Positions 4,107-49,146 of a stretch of DNA of 64,000 bases are shown piece by piece (the first letter of the stretch is position 1; the number at the start of each line of letters is the position of its first letter). A model generated the notes under the pieces. It was not told where the DNA came from. It saw nothing but the letters and a program-made list of their open reading frames with translations, and searched no databases. The stretch spans positions 87,368,520 to 87,432,519 of the forward strand of contig NC_058339.1 of assembly GCF_905475395.1 (NCBI RefSeq), read 5' to 3'. Source of the stretch: Chrysoperla carnea (taxonomy: Eukaryota; Arthropoda; Insecta; Neuroptera; Chrysopidae). The position numbers and the translations under genes were made by a program.

Positions 4107-5074
4107 ACGTATGTACACAGGTGGTCACGCAAATGAATAACTTATTGCATCTATACTTAAGCATCTATAAGTAAAGTATAAATTGTTTTGAATACATACA
4201 TATACAATAAAAATGTTCAATTCTGTGTGTTTTGAATGCAGTATTATCAGAAATATTAAATAATAATAAAAAATTCATTAACTGCACAAATGGTTACATG
4301 ATTCATTCATCCATATAATAAACAAACAAAATAAAAACATCTATAAAATTATTTTGGAAATGTGTTTAAATTTTGTTTAGAGTACAAACGAATTTCAAAA
4401 TTATTGAATAGTTCTTAAATAGTTTTTAATATTCGAAGCTTTAACACGCCAGCACTCGCTTGCTAATTATGACACTAACATTAACATTTTTCATAAATTT
4501 ATTGAATTTTTATCATTTCACTATGTATACTTCTTTTGTATTAATCTTGCACCCGGTGGTTGCAACATAATTATTAATTTTAGAAAAAAAAGTTTAAAGT
4601 AAAAGTTTTAGGAAATTTGCCTAAAAGTTAAGTTATTATCACTTTCAACAAATATTTAAACAAATATTAGAAGGCGTATCGGTTAAACAGTCAAAAAGTA
4701 AATCGACCTAGTCGTATAAGTCATAAACGGTTAGTGATACAAAATAAAATTATTTTTCAAAAAAGGTAGGTAATTATCTACAATAAAGGTTATTACCATT
4801 TTCGGTCTCAAATGCACGGTTATGGAGATATAGCGGTTTTCTAAGACGGTTTTCCTTAAAATTTCCTTAAAGCTACAAAAATAGAATTCTAAAATATTTT
4901 CGCATTTTATGGGTTACTGGCCTTACGTACACCTTACATACACATTAACAATCTTTTAATAAATACAAAAATGGAATATACCGTTCATATTTTTAATTCT
5001 CACACAGATAGGTTCAATATTTTCGAATAGAATCAAAAGTCACACCATATAAAAAACATTACATTTTATACCAT
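4107..5074. other. No gene seen
   Basis: This is AT-rich sequence with many stop codons in all frames. I recognise no repeat copy or coding segment. Confidence 0.6.
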
Positions 5075-5965
5075 GTATATAAAATATATCAAGGTATACT
5101 TAATTTAGTCCCAGGTTTGTAACTCATAAAAATATTGGTACAACGAACAATTGGTATTCGCACCCTGTGTGAGTTTTATTGGAGGCGTTTCCATGGTAAC
5201 GATACACTACTTTAATTACAGAATTATATGGATGCATATATAATTGTATGGATTGCATTTATGACTTTCATTGAAAACTTAATATTATTGTCTCCCAAAT
5301 TTAAATAAATAATTATGATAATTTACATTTGAAAAATAATGTTTGTGCAGTTTGATTTCTTATTTTCACAATTTTTAATGCATTAAGTTTAATTAATGTT
5401 TTTCAATAATTTTAATTTGACATTCACTATAACATTTAATATACATGTAAAGAATTACAAATTAGTCATAACAGCCTCCTTTTTCACTGGAAGCGCTGGC
5501 ATCGATTTTATTGCCCCTACCATGACTACGCACACAACGAATAGGTTTTCATAAAATCTATTTTCGGTTGTCCGTCTAAATGTCTGCTTGGGAGCACGAT
5601 AATTCAAAAATGAAAAGATATCAAGAGATCAAGCTGAAATATTATAGCGTTTTCAGGGCGTAAAAAGTGAGGAGGAGTTCGTAAATGAGCAACATAGGTC
5701 AAGGTCTTGGATCCGTAGGCTTCATCTAGTAAATTGTAATTGTTGAGATAGAACAAAAATTTAAAAGTAAAAAATTTTCCTTATGAAAATTTATTATATA
5801 TAAGAAAATCAGTTATGTGTTCGTGTTATATATTATACACGACTGTGGCTATCTAAGAGTGACTATCTTCTTTTATTTACATGACGTTAAAAAGCAGACA
5901 ATTGCGTAATCAATACTGTCTATATATAGTATTTCAACAATTAACTCAGCCAATTGTTTATTTTT
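5075..5965 (-). repeat. Dispersed repeat family A, copy 2, interrupted
   Basis: The family A blocks occur here in reverse orientation: ATATCAAGGTATACTTAATT near 5090, GTTCGTAAATGAGCAACATA near 5670, and CAACAATTAACTCAGCCAATTG near 5940. Roughly 5158-5550 is not family A. It includes a family B fragment (GGTAACGATACACTACTTTA, near 5196) that recurs at 23.46 kb. The copy was therefore probably split by later insertions. Confidence 0.7.
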
Positions 5966-8876: not shown

Positions 8877-8945
8877 TTCGAAAATATCCGATATTTATTA
8901 TAAATATCAAAATATCGGATATTTTTGATATATATCCGATATATA
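8877..8945. repeat. Cluster of ATATCCGATAT-type palindromes
   Basis: The motifs ATATCCGATAT and ATATCGGATAT occur three to four times within about 70 bp, directly before the 316-bp satellite. It may be the degraded edge of that array or a separate micro-repeat. Confidence 0.6.
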
Positions 8946-8952
8946 TTTAAAA

Positions 8953-10335
8953 GTATGGCCCAAATTTAGTAGGATTACATACTTGGTTTATCAAAATTGG
9001 ATAAAATTTGCATGTGATAGAGCAAAATTAAATTTTTTGGATTCTGATGACGTCATAAAGTTCAAAAATTCGATTTTTTTGATAACACAGGCAATTGTTA
9101 TCCGATCTTATTGGAATTTTTTTTGAAACCCACTAATTTTGGGTCATTCTTTTCAGCTGTGATGTCAGTTTTTCGCTAGTTATCACTTATGTGCTTAATT
9201 CCGGGACCAGGCCTCCACATTCTTGAAATCTAATAGAGCTAGGTTAATTTTGATCATAAATTTGAAAAATATGGCCCAAATTTAGTAGGATTACATACTT
9301 TGTTTATCAAAATTGGATAAAATTTCGATGTAATAGAGCAAAATTAAATATTTTGAATTTTGATGACGTCATCAAGTTCAAAAATTCGATTTTTTTAATA
9401 ACGCAGGCAATTTTAATCCGATCTTATTGGAATTTTTTTTGAAACCCACTAATTTTGGGTCATTCTTTTCAGCTGTGATGTCAGTTTTTCGCTAGTTATC
9501 ACATATGTGCTTAATTCCGGAACCAGGCGTCCACATTCTTGAAATCTTATAGAGCTAGGGTAATTTTGATCATAAATTTGAAAATTATGGCCCAAATTTA
9601 GTAGAAGTACATACTTGGTTTATCAAAATTGGATAAAATTTGCATGTGATAGAGCAAAATTAAATTTTTTGGATTCTGATGACGTCATAAAGTTCAAAAA
9701 TTCGATTTTTTGATAACACAGGCAATTGTTATCCGATCTTCTTGGAATTTTTTTTGAAACCAACTAATTTTAGGTCATTCTTTTCAGCTGTGATGTCAGT
9801 TTTTCGCTAGCTATCACATATGTGCCTAATTCCAGGACCAGACCTCCACAATCTTGAAACCTAATAGAGCTAGATTAATTTTGACCGTAAATTTGAAAAG
9901 TATGGCCCAAATTTAGTAGGATTACATACTTGGTTTATCAAAATTGGATAAAATTTGGCTGTGATAGAGCAAAATTAAATTTTTTGGATTCTGATGACGT
10001 CATAAAGTTCAAAAATTCGATTTTTTTGATAACACAAGCAATTGTTATCCGATCTTCTTGGAATTTTTTTTGAAACCCACTAATTTTAGGCCATTCTTTT
10101 CAGCTGTGATGTCAGTTTTTCGCTAGCTATCACATATGTGCTTAATTCCGGAACCAGGCGTCAACATTCTTGAAATCTAATAGAGCTAGGGTAATTTTGA
10201 TCATAAATTTGAAAATTATGGCCCAAATTTAGTAGAATTACATACTTGGTTTATCAAAATTGGATAAAATTTGGATGTGATAGAGCAAAATTAAATTTTT
10301 TGGATTCTGATGACGTCATAAAGTTCAAAAATTTC
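8953..10335 (+). repeat. 316-bp-period tandem satellite, about 4.4 copies
   Basis: ATGGCCCAAATTTAGTAG recurs at 8955, 9271, 9587, 9902 and 10218, a period of 315-316 bp. Each unit holds GATGACGTCATAAAGTTC (one copy reads ..TCATCAAG..), TCAGCTGTGATGTCAG and TCGCTAG(T/C)TATCAC. Copies differ by scattered substitutions and single-base indels. The array stops abruptly inside a unit near 10335. There is no coding frame. Each unit carries a TGACGTCA octamer, the palindrome bound by CREB/ATF-type bZIP factors; whether it is used is unknown. Confidence 0.9.
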
Positions 10336-15755: not shown

Positions 15756-15764
15756 TCAAAAAAA

Positions 15765-16230
15765 AATTTTTTGTACTTAATGACGTCATCAAAATCGAAA
15801 AATATTTATTTTGCTCTATCACGCGCAAATCTTATTTAATTTGAATAAACTAAATATGTTATTCTCTTAAGTTTTGATCATATTTTTCAAATTTTATGGA
15901 TCGGATCAAATTTGGCTGATTTATCAAAAAAACGATTTTTGTACATCAAGATAAAAAAATTGATTTTTCATTAGGCCTACGCGCAAATTTTATTCAATTT
16001 AAATAAACGTAATATTTAGTTCTATTAATTTGTTGCATTTTTTCCAAATTTTATCATAAGCTTTACATATAAGATCAACTTTGACTGGCTTCTACAAAAA
16101 ATCAATACTTACATGATGACGTCATGTACATCATCATTTTTAAAAAATTGATTTTGCTTTATTCCGCGCAAATCTTATTAAAATTGAATGAACTTAAATA
16201 TGCAAATTTTACTAAATTTTGGTCATATAT
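15765..16230 (-). repeat. Diverged, inverted relatives of the 316-bp satellite
   Basis: TGACGTCATC (15780), TTTTGCTCTATCAC (about 15810) and GCGCAAATCTTATT (15824, 16167; variant at 15981) match, in reverse complement, blocks of the 316-bp unit (GATAGAGCAAAA, TGATGACGTCA). Spacing is irregular (about 157 and 186 bp). These are older, rearranged units in opposite orientation. Confidence 0.6.
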
Positions 16231-32663: not shown

Positions 32664-32856
32664 TGGTTGGGTTGGGTTGGGTTGGGTTAGGTTAGGTTGG
32701 GTTAGGTTGGGTTAGGCTGGGTTAGGCTGGGTTAGGCTGGGTTAGGCTGGGTTAGGCTGGGTTAGGCTGGGTTAGGCTGGGTTAGGTTGGGTTGGGTTGG
32801 GTTGGGTTGGATTGGGTGTGGGTGTGGGTGTGGGTTGAGTTGAGTTGGGTTGTGGT
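32664..32856 (+). repeat. Telomere-like pentamer/decamer repeat tract
   Basis: About 190 bp of GGTTG, GGTTA and GGCTG pentamers. The middle is a regular 10-mer (GGTTAGGCTG), repeated about eight times. The ends are GGTTG-rich, and the right end grades into GGTGTG and TGAGT. GGTTA is the arthropod telomere unit TTAGG in another register. It is internal to the window, so it is interstitial. Confidence 0.85.
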
Positions 32857-33572
32857 TATTTATGAAGCCACTGTTAAAATTTGAATCCTCAAATTATAGA
32901 CCTATAAAATTTACACATTTCAGTTACATTTGGTTTGAATGCAATTTTAAAAATTATGCACATAATTTCCTGCATAGTATAATCAATTTTCTACCATTTA
33001 TACACAAATACTGAATACATATGTTCTATAAAGTGAACACAAAGAAAATATATATCGCTCTCTATTTGATAAAAATATATTTCAATGTGATAAGAAAAGG
33101 TAACAAATATATTATTTTCTAGTTCGTTTCGTTCGTGTATTGTGAAATTTTGTTTGTGGAATGTGTGCGCTTGTGAACTGCACAACTTGTAGGTGTGCAT
33201 ATTTTGTATGTGTATATAAGTTTGTTCTTTTTACATCGGTGAAATTTTCTGAGTGTAAGCAAAACAAACTAATGCTATTACAATGATATAACATCGATCC
33301 TTTTCTACGAACACATAGTGTATACACTGAGATACAAAAAGAACATGCTTTACATGTGTCTATGTATAAAATGAATGTATTTATGTATATGAATACGATA
33401 TTTTAACATGAACTCCAACGTTACTAATCGATATCTAGAAACGACCTACTAGCAAACACTGAGTTCATCGTGAGTTGCTAATAATATAGACTAGAGAATA
33501 ACAAAATTATTTACTTACTCAAGTTATTTCATTTTATTTTATAATTGAAGTGTGCGATTTGCCTTTGTTATA

Positions 33573-38300: not shown

Positions 38301-40203
38301 CCGACTTGATTGAGAACATTTTATAGCTAAGTATCAAAAAATCGTTTTACGAGAATTAAATTTGTCGGGGGTTTTTTTAATTTTGTAAATTTCACTTGTT
38401 CTGAAAATACAAAATACGAAAATTTACAAGTATAGTTATCTGTATCTGGGGCAACACTGTATTTTAAAATCAATCCACGTGTGAACAAAGATTCGCCCAG
38501 TTAGTAATAAAAAAAGGCGATGTACTGTTGACTAAATTACCCTTTCCTAACCTAGAAGAGGATGATTTATTTAATAACAAATGTAAATAACCGTAAAATA
38601 ATATTAAATTCGTATCATTATATTAATTAAAAGTATAATATAATGAGTTTGTTTTACTTTAAAAAGAAAAAAATAATAAACTTGAAACAGAATGATGACA
38701 GGCATATGATTAAAAAAGTTTTTACAAAAAAGTACTCAAACAAAAAAGTATTCCAAGCAGAGTGATTTATTAAATAAACCAAACACATGAAATTCGTATT
38801 GATCTTATGATCTTATGAGCGACATGTTTTTAGTATATTGTTTGAAAAAATGGAATACCACCAATCAAACCAAATTTCGGAAGACAAATTCAAATCGGAG
38901 ACAATACGTTTTCACAATTTTTTGCAACAATAAAAAATATTTCCCGAAATTTCTTGAAAAGTGATATTAAAGGCAATATCGACTCAAATGTTACACAAAT
39001 CAGGTTTCATTCAACTATTGGATTAGAAATTTTTTAGCTGTCGCCTTTTTTTGGACGTTTGATTATAGTAATGAATAGGGTACTTTCGGTAGTGAAAAAT
39101 AAATTTTGAAATTTGATAAAAATTAAAATTTATTTAGATATATACTTACTTAAATATTCTGATTTTGAGTCATAAAAGCACATTATTGTTTTATTATATT
39201 AAAATTAAAAGTCGCAATTTGTAATCTGTATATCACGTGATTTTAAACACGAGCCCCCATGATGTGACAACATATATGCAAAAATAATATGCATAAATTA
39301 CTTATTTGTTGATGGCTTTCATAGTAATTATTGTAGGTTATACCACCATCAACTTTATTATAGGTATAATGATTGACTGTTGTTTTTACCAATATTACGT
39401 CAGCAAAATGGCTGACAGCGTTTTTGCGAGAATAAAACAGGTTTAAAATTTCATTTAATTTTATGACCAGAAAGCGTGTTTATTTTGCTGACATATATTT
39501 TGTTTGTAGCTTTTTATTTGGAAAAACAACAACATTTTGAAGTACTCTTTCAAACATAGTAGAATACCCTATTGAAAAGTTATTTATGGAAATTTGGAAA
39601 TAAGATTGGTCTGACAAAAATTATTGATCAAACTAAATAAATCACACGGTATTATAAATACGTACAGCAAATATAATAAAGTCAACTGTTTATAACATTG
39701 TTTGTTCATAATAAGTTAGTATAAAGTTGGGGGTGTAGAAACTGATATTGAGGGATGAATAAACAACATTCATTGCATAGAAAGAAAAATAACAAAGAAA
39801 AGGTCATTCACCTCATAATTATTGACATGTGAATGCAATTTTTATCTAATTTCACAGTCTATATAAACATATTTTAGAATGTGAATAGGCTGTGGTCTTC
39901 TTCTTTTAATAAAAACTAACTTGATACCCCCGTTTCACTGGGCTTAAAAGTAAAAACCACCGCTTTATAGCCTCCACCTCTCTTGATCTCACTTATACCT
40001 CTTCCATAACACTTGAAGGGATTGTTTTACACAGCTAAAAGATATGCATAGTTTTCAATTTTTTAAATCGTAAAATAGTCATATTTGATTGAACATAAAT
40101 TTTTACAGAAATCTTTAATTTATGGTTCAAAATGATGATCATTTTTGCTAATTAGTATATAGACGGTATACCGTCTACACGGTATACCGTCTATATTTGT
40201 ATG

Positions 40204-40872
40204 ATAATATATTATTACATAATATACGAACGTATTATTACATAATATACGAACATAATTACATAATATATGACGGCACGGTATACGGTATACCGTCTAT
40301 ACGGTATACCGTGTAGACGGTATACCGTCTATATATATATATACCGTCTATACGGTATACCGTCTACACGGTATACCGTCTACACGGTATACCGTCTATA
40401 CGGTATACCGTCTACACGGTATACCGTCTACACGGTATACCGTCTACACGGTATACCGTCTACACGGTATACCGTCTACACGGTATACCGTCTACACGGT
40501 ATACCGTCTACACGGTATACCGTCTATACGGTATACCGTCTACACGGTATACCGTCTATACGGTATACCGTCTACACGGTATACCGTCTATACGGTATAC
40601 CGTCTACACGGTATACCGTCTACACGGTATACCGTCTACACGGTATACCGTCTATACGGTATACCGTCTATACGGTATACCGTCTACACGGTATACCGTC
40701 TATACGGTATACCGTCTATACGGTATACCGTCTATACGGTATGCCGTCCACGGTATACCGTCTATACGGTATGCCGTCCACGGTATACCGTATACCGTGC
40801 CGTCATATATTATGTAATTATGTTCGTATATTATGTAATAATACGTTCGTATATTATGTAATAATATATTAT
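40204..40872. repeat. Perfect 93-bp inverted repeat around the array
   Basis: Positions 40204-40296 and 40780-40872 are exact reverse complements over 93 bp. The arms consist of TACATAATATACGAAC-type repeats followed by GACGGCACGGTATACGG. The 483 bp between them is the palindrome array, so the whole 669 bp is self-complementary at two scales. Confidence 0.95.
40297..40779. repeat. 16-bp tandem array of ACGGTATACCGT palindromes
   Basis: Units of the form CGGTATACCGTCTACA or CGGTATACCGTCTATA repeat at 16-bp spacing. There are roughly 30 copies of the GGTATACC core, counting those in the arms. Each core sits in a 12-bp perfect palindrome. Units preceded by AGAC extend it to 16 bp. Near 40310-40345 the spacer orientation flips (GTGTAGACGG), next to a TATATATATATA tract. 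Two late units carry GGTATGCC. Confidence 0.95.
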
Positions 40873-40896
40873 AATATATTATGCCGTCGAGCCCTT

Positions 40897-41192
40897 ATAC
40901 CGTGTGCGGTATAGTCTCGTCCACGGTATACACAATATAGATTGGAAGGCTTATTTGAAGCAAATGAAACATACCGTGTGCGGTATACTCTCGTCCACGG
41001 TATACATTATACAGATGGGAGAGCGTATTCTACAGAAATGTAACATACCGTGTGCGGTATACTCTCGTCCACGGTATACATTATACAGATGGGAGAGCGT
41101 ATTCTACAGAAATGTAACATACCGTGTGCGGTATACTCTCGTCCACGGTATACATTATACAGATGGGAAAGCGTATTCTACAGAGATTTTTT
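40897..41192 (+). repeat. Four tandem 74-bp units
   Basis: ATACCGTGTGCGGTAT starts at 40897, 40971, 41045 and 41119, exactly 74 bp apart. Each unit also holds CTCGTCCACGGTATAC. Units 2-4 are nearly identical and unit 1 is diverged. ATACCG-TGTG-CGGTAT is an interrupted version of the same palindrome. Confidence 0.92.
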
Positions 41193-41292
41193 GGCGTGCG
41201 AGGTTTTTAACCGCACACGGTAAGCTATAACACACGGTATGCGTTTATACAGAGATTTTCAAGCCATGCGAGGTTTTTAACCGCACACGGTA
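41190..41292 (+). repeat. Two 80-bp-spaced degenerate units
   Basis: TGCGAGGTTTTTAACCGCAC followed by ACGGTA occurs at 41197 and 41277. ACCG-CACA-CGGT is again a split CGGT palindrome. Confidence 0.8.
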
Positions 41293-41503
41293 TGTCATAA
41301 TAGACTGTATACGTCTAGATAGAACTTGTAAGACTTGAAATTGCTTTATACTGCACGCAGTGAGCTATATCTTACGGTACATCTATATATTTAGCTTGTG
41401 GTACATCTATATATTTAACTCTACACTATCAGTTGGCAAAAGAAGACGGCATTTAGGTCCGTAGCTGTACTTAGTACCGAAGTTAGTTGGTGGGAAGTTA
41501 GTT

Positions 41504-41659
41504 GTGCTCCACTGCACAAGTCATAGTAAAATACTGTGACTTGTGCTCCACTCCACAAGTAATTGTAAAATACTGTGACTTGTGCTCCACTCCACAAGTC
41601 ATAGTAAAATACTGTGACTTGTGCTCCACTCCACAAGTCATAGTAAAATACTGTGACTT
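41504..41659 (+). repeat. Four tandem 39-bp palindromic units
   Basis: GTGCTCCACT starts at 41504, 41543, 41582 and 41621. Within each unit ACAAGTCA and TGACTTGT face each other around AGTA..TACT, giving an almost perfect palindrome of about 29 bp. Unit 2 reads ACAAGTAATTG. Frames on both strands read through the repeat and are not genes. Confidence 0.92.
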
Positions 41660-41762
41660 GTATCAGTTGTACATTATGTTGTACTTTATTCATCTACGAG
41701 GATGTAGATGAATAGACCGTATACGGTATACCGTGGACGGTCTAGACCGTAGACGGTATTGT

Positions 41763-42900
41763 GCGGATAGCCACACCGTTAATTAAACAATAACAAAAAA
41801 ATAACTAGTTTATTTAAATTTTCTTTTTAATTGTCGGATTAAATCCATGGCAATTTAAAGGCAATAAACAATTTTATTTATAATAAACAAATTTTATTTT
41901 AAAAATGTTTATTTCACAACTAAAGAATGTAAATAAATTTAAATCAACGTAGACATAATAATTTTATCATTATCCAAATTTGAATTAATTCGGTACAATA
42001 AATCGTTAATAAATTCAATCGATTTAAAATTAAATAAAAATAACTTACCTTCTTCAAAAAACAAATTTCTTATTTATAATAAAAAGAAACATTTTAAAGT
42101 TTATTTTATCTTTAGCGAACCCACCATTATAACACTTTAAAAGTTATTTAATTATTATTTATTAATTTTTTAGTCACATTTTAAATATTATTTATCAGTA
42201 AACAAAACTCACTTTTCAAAAAGTAACCTAAAAATTTTATAAAACACTTTCCATTTTACATAAACAGGTTTACCAACTTTTAATGATTTTGACATTTGCT
42301 TAAAACATCAAATTCTAATCTAATACACACAACGTAATTTATAGGGACCATGACCATCTGTCGCGATACATTTTTTGGAATCTGAGTAAAAATCTTTAAG
42401 AATATCATCTTTAGAAATTCTACTTAAGGTTTAATGTTTATCCAATTCTCAGTTTTTCTATTAAAAAAAATCTATTCTTAAAACTTTAACAATTCTGAGA
42501 AAACTTCCCTTTTATACTTCATTTAAACCGCGAAGCCCTTGATTTATACGTATTGCTCATTACCCTTGTTCATTTTCGTATAACGGAGGATCATTTTAAT
42601 TGATAGTGTAATGATTTTCAAAAAATAAATGTTGAAATCAAATGTAGACATGTTACTTTTTTGTCCTAAAAAATTGCTCCATGTTTACCTCGTTTTAGTA
42701 ATATTTTTAATCATGATGTTGGATGTACTGGATGATGTCAGACCATTTGACGTTGACATTTACACAATAATTCATTAAAATTTATCGTTACTTTCGTTAA
42801 AAGGGGAAGATATTGTTAAAGGAATTAAAATTACAAGTACATAAAGGTTTGTGCAAATTTTTATCCCCATAATTATAATAACTGAATAATAACATTTTAA
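41763..42900. other. Intergenic region upstream of Bet1
   Basis: AT-rich with no gene. The transcription start for Bet1 probably lies in the last 150-200 bp. No TATA box stands out. Confidence 0.5.
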
Positions 42901-48066: not shown

Positions 48067-49146
48067 ATGGAAGGTGTATTACATTATATAAGCAGGCAAA
48101 TTAATATATCTCATAATGAAAAAAGATTGTATAATCAACATTTTCAAAATTTTATATACGAATTTATTGAGGATATGATGGACATTGATGAACTTTTTGC
48201 ATACATGTATAGAAAAATAGCCTTTGTTGGAAGTTACTGGGAAGGTGCAAAAATTGATAAACCCGATGAATTTGATCTAAACATAGTATTAAAATTACCT
48301 GTAAAATGTGAGGAAATCGAAATAAAAAATGCTGGACAATCTGGTTTTTTAACAGTGAAAATTGATCGTAACTCGATTAAAAAACTACCAAAACAAAAGA
48401 TGTTTAAGGTAATGCAAGATTGGTTTGATGATAAAAATTTTTTTTTACCTGATAAATTTCGTAATTGGATGTATTCGGTTGTGCAAAAAACTTTCAACGA
48501 AATAGGCTATGATCTTTGCTTAGATTATAATGTTCAAGTTAAAACAAACGGACCTGCAATTACATTATTTGTTGGGGGAAAATACCCTTTTTCTATTGAT
48601 ATCGTTCCAGTTATACAAATGCCAAATTCAAGGTGGCCAGAACCACCGTTTCGCCCAAATCCTTATCCAAAACTGAACCATTTAGCATGGAGTCTGATAC
48701 CAAAACCAAGGAAAGGTATTAATGTCCAAACAGAACCGGGTTGGATTTATTGGCGACCATCATTCTATGATTACGAACGGCGATTGATGATGGGACAAAA
48801 TCGATTGAAACCTGCTTGGAAAATACTAAAGAAATTAAAGGAAAGCCGTGGAATGGAAAGAATAGTAAATTATCATATTAAAAATTTGTGTTTGATAGAA
48901 CTTGAAAAAAACAAAGACATTTGGAACACAAAATCACTTGAACATGTTTTCTTACATTTATTAAAAGTTTTCCAACTATCTTTGCAAGTCAAGAAACTTC
49001 CATTTTATTGGCAAATGGATGATAATTTGTACAAAACAATTAAAAATGACATTTTACAAGATCATTATCAACACATAACAAAGATTATTAAAAAGATTGA
49101 ACAGAATCCTAAATCCATATCGGAATATTTTCGTTTTTATTATTAA
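48067..49146 (+). CDS. cGLR: cGAS-like receptor (Mab-21/cGAS nucleotidyltransferase)
   Basis: A complete intronless 359-residue protein. An in-frame TAG lies just upstream of the start ATG. The nucleotidyltransferase core shows Gly55-Ser56 (FVGSYWEG), then Glu68 and Asp70 in KPDEFDLNIVLKL, and a third acidic residue, Asp178, in PFSIDIVPVI. This is the complete metal-binding triad of cGAS-fold enzymes, so it is probably active. The C-terminal half has the Mab-21 helical pattern (WRPSFYDYERRLM about 229-241, LKPAWKILKKLK, YHIKNLCLIELEK, LPFYW about 311-315). The cysteine/histidine zinc thumb of vertebrate cGAS is absent, as in invertebrate cGLRs. Studied family members bind nucleic acid (dsRNA for Drosophila cGLR1) and make cyclic dinucleotides that activate STING. 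Ligand and product cannot be read from sequence. AATAAA occurs 112 and 124 bp after the stop. Confidence 0.92.
   Translation: MEGVLHYISRQINISHNEKRLYNQHFQNFIYEFIEDMMDIDELFAYMYRKIAFVGSYWEGAKIDKPDEFDLNIVLKLPVKCEEIEIKNAGQSGFLTVKIDRNSIKKLPKQKMFKVMQDWFDDKNFFLPDKFRNWMYSVVQKTFNEIGYDLCLDYNVQVKTNGPAITLFVGGKYPFSIDIVPVIQMPNSRWPEPPFRPNPYPKLNHLAWSLIPKPRKGINVQTEPGWIYWRPSFYDYERRLMMGQNRLKPAWKILKKLKESRGMERIVNYHIKNLCLIELEKNKDIWNTKSLEHVFLHLLKVFQLSLQVKKLPFYWQMDDNLYKTIKNDILQDHYQHITKIIKKIEQNPKSISEYFRFYY

What the first reader, a model, noticed from the sequence alone, without database searches (positions are those of the whole stretch)
40204..40872. Giant nested palindrome: about 30 ACGGTATACCGT palindromes inside perfect 93-bp inverted arms
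The 93-bp arms are identical over their full length as reverse complements, while most other inverted repeats in this window are diverged. Either the structure is young or gene conversion maintains it. The interior is a 16-bp-period array whose every unit is itself palindromic, with a spacer-orientation flip at a TA tract near 40330. Such DNA should extrude cruciforms. It could be a foldback-type transposon, a set of sites for a dimeric DNA-binding protein, or a replication-origin-like iteron array comparable in layout to palindromic repeat regions of large insect DNA viruses. I cannot choose between these from sequence.
Basis: partly seen in the sequence, partly recalled or inferred. Interest (0 to 1): 0.85.

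Follow-up and report, generated by a model that had tools for sequence, protein, structure and literature searches.

The report
Palindromic repeat scar in lacewing transposon
A long stretch of head-to-head DNA repeats on a green lacewing chromosome appears to be the overgrown, folded-back end of a non-coding jumping gene, and some similar ends elsewhere in the genome also lie between mirror-image copies of neighbouring DNA.

Summary
In detail: 93-bp arms (40204-40296, 40780-40872) are exact reverse complements around 29 perfect ACGGTATACCGT units. The host is Chrysoperla carnea, chromosome 3. The arms are not a transposon's ends: a genome search found their sequence only here. The repeated unit is larger. 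Window 40156-41778 is a damaged copy of a terminal-inverted-repeat (TIR) element with 82 conserved termini found, against 0 for a reversed control pattern; 11 of 16 two-ended copies have perfect 9-bp target duplications. TIRs reach 670 bp: foldback-type, probably Mutator/Rehavkus-like, but no transposase was linked to it. TIRs are rich in ATACCG/CGGTAT half-sites, and the array unit matches the TIR's own palindrome at nt 45. Of 57 arrays, 12 abut inverted arms on both sides, against 1 of 274 element-interior and 0 of 327 locus control positions; in three (window, L025, L041) the arms are not element DNA. Best reading: the palindromic array is a recurrent fold-back or template-switch centre that duplicates its neighbours in inverted orientation. 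Virus and origin readings are not supported.

The parts
40156..41778 (+). damaged copy of a long-TIR transposon without a known gene; right terminus present, left terminus not found
   Evidence: element-derived span by comparison with 11 reference copies (slice 4157-5779 = window 40156-41778); right terminus with ACCG core; no left terminus
40163..40190 (.). two palindromic units outside the left arm
40204..40296 (+). left inverted arm, 93 bp; its AT-rich part was found only at this locus
40285..40791 (.). 16-bp-period array, 29 exact ACGGTATACCGT units plus two one-base variants; spacers mostly CTAC/CTAT with one GTAG
40780..40872 (-). right inverted arm, exact reverse complement of the left arm
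40879..41184 (+). inner part of the left TIR, from TTATGCCGTCGAG, with 74-bp tandem repeats at 40897-41184
   Evidence: 74-bp module in 18 of 20 other array loci; comparable order in the TIRs of L029 and L032
41185..41500 (+). further module (H) shared with other copies
41502..41661 (+). 39-bp tandem repeats, 4.1 copies, shared with other copies
41713..41778 (+). right TIR terminus ending GTGCGGATAGCCAC+ACCG
   Evidence: this locus is one of the 82 terminus hits
41779..41787 (+). where the 9-bp target duplication should lie (TTAATTAAA); only TAATTA recurs beside 40156

Best explanation
The feature is the rearranged left end of a non-autonomous, foldback-type DNA transposon of Chrysoperla carnea, probably of the Mutator/Rehavkus type. 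Shown: the family has conserved termini, 9-bp A/T-rich target duplications in most two-ended copies examined, and TIRs up to 670 bp that are rich in ATACCG/CGGTAT half-sites. The TIR carries ACGGTATACCGT 45 nt from its end, the same palindrome that forms the array. In the window copy, two units, arm, array and arm stand in place of about the outer 152 nt of the left TIR. Shown as a pattern: arrays abut inverted arms on both sides far more often than control positions do, and the arms may be TIR DNA or unrelated DNA. Inferred: the array grew from the TIR palindrome; hairpins in it, at a broken transposon end or stalled fork, let the nascent strand make U-turns that copy adjacent DNA in inverted orientation. 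The 93-bp arms are such an inverted duplication of DNA specific to this locus. Also inferred: the half-sites first served as transposase binding sites.
For: Termini: 82 hits, 0 for the reversed control pattern. TSDs: the offset (4-nt core, then 9 bp) was read from L021 and L024, then applied to 13 newly fetched two-ended copies: 9 of 13 perfect; 11 of 16 in all, with L021, L024 and L026. TIR matches up to 670 bp at 96% in L032. TIR palindrome at nt 45 in 16 of 18 ends of nine copies; 29 and 52 in the other two. Half-sites: 84 in the 1.64-kb element against 16 in the rest of the window, 16.3 expected. Arms: 2 places found, both here. Abutting inverted arms: 12 of 57 arrays, 1 of 274 element-interior positions, 0 of 327 locus positions; at most ten classes by outer flanks. 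Non-element arms: window (85 bp in that measure, 98.8%), L025 (128 bp, 100%), L041 (130 bp, 100%). L025 reads array, partial flank, inverted flank, array, flank, as two U-turns would leave. L017 is an 8.9-kb array-centred palindrome (92% over the whole; 4453 aligned arm positions at 93.7%) whose right arm ends beside another array. Fold-back inverted duplications at breaks are reported in yeast (PMC11724301, abstract).
Against: No transposase is linked to these TIRs. PF10551 has 14 matches in the genome; none of the 10 loci held (3.2-3.3 kb each) carries GTGGCTATCC. 45 of 57 arrays fail the strict arm criterion, which I chose after seeing examples. The looser measure (any inverted flank within 100 bp: 12 of 35, 13 of 22) is weak, because positions inside elements reach 59 of 274, though locus controls gave 0 of 308. 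Five of 16 two-ended copies lack perfect TSDs: L026 (2 mismatches), L031, L034, L037, L038. In nine of the 12 arm cases the arms are TIR DNA, so joining of two ends could also explain those. Not all cases are independent. The window's left terminus was not found and only TAATTA recurs at the expected TSD place. The yeast fold-backs are mostly 5-34 bp, shorter than most arms here.
Confidence: 0.68

Rival explanations
1. The arms and array are themselves a small foldback transposon, mobile as a unit, inserted into the larger element.
For: Perfect inverted arms around a repetitive middle; array-centred palindromes with shared flanks occur at more than one place (L015, L046).
Against: The arm sequence was found at this locus only, and not in L002-L040. 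No direct repeat longer than 4 bp abuts 40204-40872, and none longer than 6 bp abuts 40200-40876, ends free by 4. The arms include array-like sequence (40278-40296).
Confidence: 0.07
2. Inside-out circles: an excised element with its two ends joined acquired the array at the junction and re-entered the genome, giving interior-TIR-array-TIR-interior.
For: Nine of the 12 strict cases have TIR DNA on both sides; in seven of the nine the arm starts at ATACGGTCTATTTAGA or close to it, just inside the TIR palindrome; L049 is shifted by 2 nt and L020 differs.
Against: Does not explain non-element arms in the window, L025 and L041, or L017's long arms.
Confidence: 0.12
3. The array is kept by selection as a binding-site cluster (transposase trap, silencing nucleator or other regulatory site).
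For: Regular 16-bp phasing; half-site concentration in the TIRs; Galileo TIR repeats carry additional transposase binding sites (as stated in PMC4079207, passage).
Against: 24 of 41 array loci hold no intact terminus in the stretch examined, so many arrays sit in probable remnants; unit number, spacers and flips vary between loci.
Confidence: 0.1
4. Assembly artefact or collapsed repeat.
For: Palindromic arrays are hard to assemble and the reads were not seen.
Against: PacBio HiFi assembly with contig N50 67.8 Mb (PMC10116181); similar but not identical arrays at many loci and abutting arms at twelve.
Confidence: 0.03

Closest known systems
Tetris (Drosophila virilis foldback transposon)
   Same: foldback element without conserved ORFs, 8-10-bp TSDs, tandem repeats in the TIRs that seed satellite arrays, assigned by its authors to Mutator without a transposase (PMC4079207, passages)
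   Different: its repeats are called TIR-220 and are not described as palindromic in the passages seen; array-centred inverted duplications of neighbouring DNA are not mentioned in them
Rehavkus (Mutator-related DNA transposons of arthropods and annelids)
   Same: 9-bp TSD, TIR 26-400 bp, minisatellite before the 3' TIR (PMC6446971, passages); tandem arrays in the inverted termini of Rehavkus-1_TC (PMC10218199, passages)
   Different: Rehavkus encodes a transposase with a PHD finger; none was found here and no sequence comparison was possible
Galileo (P superfamily, Drosophila)
   Same: foldback-like, long variable TIRs that grow by internal tandem repeats and by taking in non-TIR sequence (PMC4168063, passages)
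   Different: in D. willistoni its TSDs are 7 or 8 bp with consensus GTATTAC; here they are 9 bp and of varied A/T-rich sequence
Fold-back inverted duplications at DNA breaks in yeast
   Same: inverted copying of adjacent DNA from a folded-back end (PMC11724301, abstract)
   Different: mostly 5-34 bp and made through microhomology; here 32 to 715 bp in the strict set and about 4.5 kb in L017, around a palindromic array

Membership tests
Mutator-like element (MULE), including Rehavkus | 8-11-bp target site duplication (9 bp for Rehavkus) | tested here: met
   11 of 16 two-ended copies have perfect 9-bp TSDs; 5 do not
Mutator-like element (MULE), including Rehavkus | long TIRs | tested here: met
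   TIR matches from the ends of 29 to 670 bp in 13 of 16 copies; none in 3 of 16 (L021, L035, L037)
Mutator-like element (MULE), including Rehavkus | an element with these TIRs that encodes a MULE DDE transposase | tested here: inconclusive
   14 PF10551 matches in the genome; TIR motif absent in the 10 loci held, each only 3.2-3.3 kb. Ten frames from three copies (L029, L032, L036) gave no Pfam match above cut-off
Rehavkus | transposase with PHD finger | not tested
   no Rehavkus profile or sequence was at hand
Rehavkus | minisatellite next to the 3' TIR | tested here: inconclusive
   tandem arrays of 16, 39 and 74 bp lie in or beside the TIRs of many copies, but which end is 3' is undefined without a gene
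Foldback transposons (structural class) | long, modular, repeat-built TIRs with little or no coding middle | tested here: met
   L032: TIRs of 670 bp in a 2310-bp element; repeat-built TIRs in L029, L032, L036; no Pfam match above cut-off in ten frames of these copies. Five other copies have short TIR matches only (29-67 bp)
Helitron/Helentron with satellite | no TIRs and no target duplication (recalled) | tested here: not met
   TIRs and 9-bp TSDs present
Insect DNA virus repeat region or origin | viral genes beside the repeats, copies in viral genomes | tested here: not met
   no exact match of the two-unit pattern in the viral contigs; no viral family among the four window frames scanned, other frames not scanned

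The most novel reading that the evidence does not exclude
Palindromic satellite arrays born from transposon ends act as dispersed generators of inverted duplications: each array can fold back and copy any neighbouring DNA, from tens of bases to several kilobases, in mirror image, so that one transposon family seeds palindromes across an insect's chromosomes.
Probability: 0.35. Interest if true: 0.75.

Novelty: new variant of a known kind. Interest (0 to 1): 0.52.

Why it matters
How palindromes and inverted duplications arise in chromosomes is studied largely in cancer cells, yeast and engineered repeats (recalled). Here a set of natural examples shares one seed sequence at a known place in a transposon end, so the fold-back hypothesis can be tested by comparing alleles and sister species. 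It also suggests a route from a palindrome in a TIR to a satellite array, and from there to damaged elements that have lost their ends.

Tried and rejected
Rejected: viral or origin-like array; the arms as TIRs of a mobile unit; Helentron-type satellite carrier (9-bp TSDs); a protein-coding reading of the ORFs over the array, which are repeat translations; tRNA or Rfam features (none reported for the window at default thresholds). The looser inverted-flank count (12 of 35; 13 of 22) was replaced by the strict one because positions inside elements reach 59 of 274 on the loose measure. Loci L001-L007 repeat the window and L008-L013 and were not counted again. L017's array with 89.8% arms falls under the 90% cut and is not among the 12. 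In the half-site count of eight copies the left end of L039 was not anchored and reads 0; the other seven have 9-12 in the first 250 bp. One search scored only 40 of 102 candidates, so the 57 arrays are a part of those in the genome. A search for further, diverged termini (pattern TTGTGCGGATAGCCAC) did not complete. Literature: the two motifs as letters gave 0 papers; a five-term search on fold-back, template switching and foldback transposons listed 10 papers, none of which by title concerns this case; satellite DNA with Chrysoperla carnea gave 1 paper, on ribosomal genes by its title. Repbase and Dfam could not be searched.

Full report
What was checked. The arms and array are as described. 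The arms are exact over 93 bp and stop on both sides; 29 exact palindromic units lie at 40285-40791 with a 16-bp period; the spacer flips beside a TA tract. The strand folds far more strongly than 20 shuffles.

Where it is. The genome search places the window at C3:87368520-87432519 of a 559-Mb genome in 337 contigs. Its contig C1 of 139,979,878 bp and the number 337 equal the longest scaffold and the scaffold count of Chrysoperla carnea inChrCarn1.1 (PMC10116181, first of two parts of the text read), a PacBio HiFi assembly with contig N50 67.8 Mb. The held contig C3 is 94.12 Mb against 94.41 Mb in the paper, so the held copy may differ slightly. Four reading frames of the window were scanned with Pfam: a Mab-21 nucleotidyltransferase, an inositol polyphosphate kinase match in two of the frames, and a Sec20 match below its cut-off.

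The larger element. Searching the genome with the 669-bp feature gave 122 matching pieces on C1-C6, a lower bound with 40 of 102 candidates scored; at other loci only query positions 73-595, the array part, matched. The arm query itself later matched two places, both here. The right flank of the feature recurs in other loci as modules: a 74-bp repeat (in 18 of the 20 loci L008-L027), a module H, a 39-bp repeat and a terminus. The terminus pattern GACGGTATTGTGCGGATAGCCACNNCG occurs 82 times with up to two mismatches, 42 on one strand and 40 on the other; the reversed control pattern gives 0.

Target duplications. L021 and L024 showed a 9-bp direct repeat outside a 4-nt core at each end. The same offset was applied to 13 further two-ended copies, the inward-facing terminus pairs under 3 kb apart that I saw and had not yet fetched: 9 of 13 are perfect. 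With L021, L024 and L026 the total is 11 of 16; L026 has two mismatches, and L031, L034, L037 and L038 have four to nine. By simple arithmetic a chance 9-bp match has a probability of about 1.6e-5 at 71% A+T, and about 0.002 in pure A+T. L034 is special: it is a 79-bp unit of two joined termini whose flanks are reverse complements over 15 bp, an inverted flank where a direct one is expected.

TIRs. In 13 of 16 two-ended copies the ends align as inverted repeats of 29 to 670 bp, the longest at 96% in L032; three (L021, L035, L037) gave no alignment from the ends. Half-sites ATACCG/CGGTAT: 16 in the window outside the element, where base composition predicts 16.3, and 84 inside 1.64 kb; 9-12 in the first 250 bp of seven of eight copies, the eighth (L039) not being anchored at its left end. 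ACGGTATACCGT first occurs at nt 45 from the end in 16 of 18 ends of nine copies, and at 29 and 52 in the other two. The array unit is this palindrome plus CTAC or CTAT, and ACCGTCTACGGT also stands in the TIR, so I infer that the array grew from the TIR. Ten frames from L029, L032 and L036 gave no Pfam match above its cut-off, only four weak matches below; the other copies' frames were not scanned.

The window copy. From TTATGCCGTCGAG at 40879 inward the sequence follows a normal left TIR. In the reference copies TTATGCCG starts at nt 153 in most ends that have it, so about the outer 152 nt are replaced by two units, arm, array and arm. The right end is at 41778; two of my notes say 41780, which was a miscount. 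No left terminus was found; at the expected TSD place only TAATTA recurs. The DNA further left, about 39901-40146, is a separate small repeat with partial matches in L012, L013, L015 and L027.

Arrays as centres of inverted duplications. I examined 57 arrays of at least five units in 41 loci (the window, L008-L027, L029, L035 and L041-L058). A strict criterion was used: inverted arms beginning within 12 bp of the array on both sides, at least 30 bp, at least 90% identical. Twelve of 57 arrays meet it, against 1 of 274 positions inside two-ended elements and 0 of 327 positions elsewhere in the loci. I set the criterion after seeing examples. A looser measure gave 12 of 35 and 13 of 22 arrays, 0 of 308 locus positions, but 59 of 274 positions inside elements, so I do not lean on it. 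The twelve cases are not all independent: L020, L041, L049, L053 and L056 share an outer flank, and so do L015, L046 and L048, leaving at most ten classes. In nine the arms are TIR sequence; seven of these start at ATACGGTCTATTTAGA, just inside the TIR palindrome, L049 is shifted by 2 nt and L020 differs. There two TIRs face each other with the array where their outer 56 nt or so should be. In three the arms are other DNA: the window, L025 and L041; L041's arm sequence also occurs in a host repeat seen in L020. In L025 the order is array, partial flank, inverted flank, array, flank, with the same array end before both direct flanks, as two template U-turns would leave. L017 is an 8.9-kb palindrome, 92% over the whole, with 4453 aligned arm positions at 93.7%, and its right arm ends beside a further array; the array in it with 89.8% arms narrowly misses the strict cut.

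Loss of ends. Of the 41 array loci, 24 have no terminus (17-nt motif, up to 2 mismatches) within 3 kb, 12 have one and 5 have two. For L041-L058 only 1.5-2.6 kb were held, so termini further off would be missed. L029 and L035 were chosen by their termini, so the figures mix two ways of sampling.

Mechanism. Shown: element, TSDs, half-site concentration, the shared palindrome and the excess of abutting arms. Inferred: that a folded-back palindromic end primes copying of neighbouring DNA. Fold-back inverted duplications at breaks are reported in yeast, though mostly of 5-34 bp (PMC11724301, abstract and section list). Whether the trigger is transposase cutting, a stalled fork or a random break is not known. 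That the half-sites bind transposase is inferred by analogy with Galileo (statement in PMC4079207, passages).

Classification. It works like a foldback transposon whose TIR repeats seed satellites, as Tetris does. The 9-bp TSD, long TIRs and minisatellites match the published description of Rehavkus (PMC6446971, passages; PMC10218199, passages), but the defining transposase was not found. A 2026 survey of arthropod MULEs uses Rehavkus as outgroup and reports TIRs of 13-1193 bp; the terms Neuroptera and Chrysop do not occur in its main text (PMC13359780, passages). PF10551 has 14 matches in the genome, 12 of them near one end of chromosome 1; the 10 loci held carry no such TIR. One of them, L059, encodes a protein with a ZSWIM1-3 RNaseH-like match above cut-off and MULE and FAR1 matches below theirs. 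I file the element as foldback-type, probably Mutator-like, with the superfamily open.

Novelty. TIR satellites and foldbacks are known. The palindromic 16-bp unit and the repeated finding of arrays between inverted copies of neighbouring DNA were not seen in the listings and passages of my searches, which do not include Repbase or most subscription journals.

Noticed in passing
G000, 82 termini: Termini are unevenly spread, by my tally: 19 of 82 on C6 (the X by size) against 6.0 expected by length, and 5 of 82 on C1 against 21.8.
   Followed up: partly
ends of L021, L024, L028-L040: The outermost 4 nt between the 9-bp TSD and the conserved GTGGCTATCC vary (CGGT, CGAA, GGAA, GCAA, GAAA) and often differ between the two ends of one copy.
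   Followed up: no
L020 3560-5330; also L041, L049, L053, L056: A TIR-array-TIR composite sits in another repeat with an end like CAGTGGCGGATT, flanked in L020 by a 248-bp direct repeat at 97%; shared flanks suggest that it spread with that repeat.
   Followed up: partly
L015 3117-5422 and L046: Array-centred palindromes at two places on C1 with shared flanks, arms about 1.15 kb in L015 and at least 0.8 kb in L046; in L015 both arms end in TAGGTTAAGAGCCGGCCG.
   Followed up: partly
L034 (79-bp unit): Two element termini joined as a short palindrome with 15 bp of flanking DNA inverted on the two sides instead of a direct target duplication.
   Followed up: partly
window 48067-49146 (+): Single-frame Mab-21 family nucleotidyltransferase, the family of cGAS-like receptors (Pfam; the receptor link is recalled).
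   Followed up: no
window 8941-10333: Tandem array of 316-bp units, 4.4 copies at 92%, with a diverged inverted copy at 15758-15894.
   Followed up: no
window 32665-32857: Degenerate pentanucleotide array, unit GGTTG, about 38 copies.
   Followed up: no
G000 C1:138.28-139.76 Mb: Twelve of 14 PF10551 (MULE) matches cluster in the last 2 Mb of C1.
   Followed up: no
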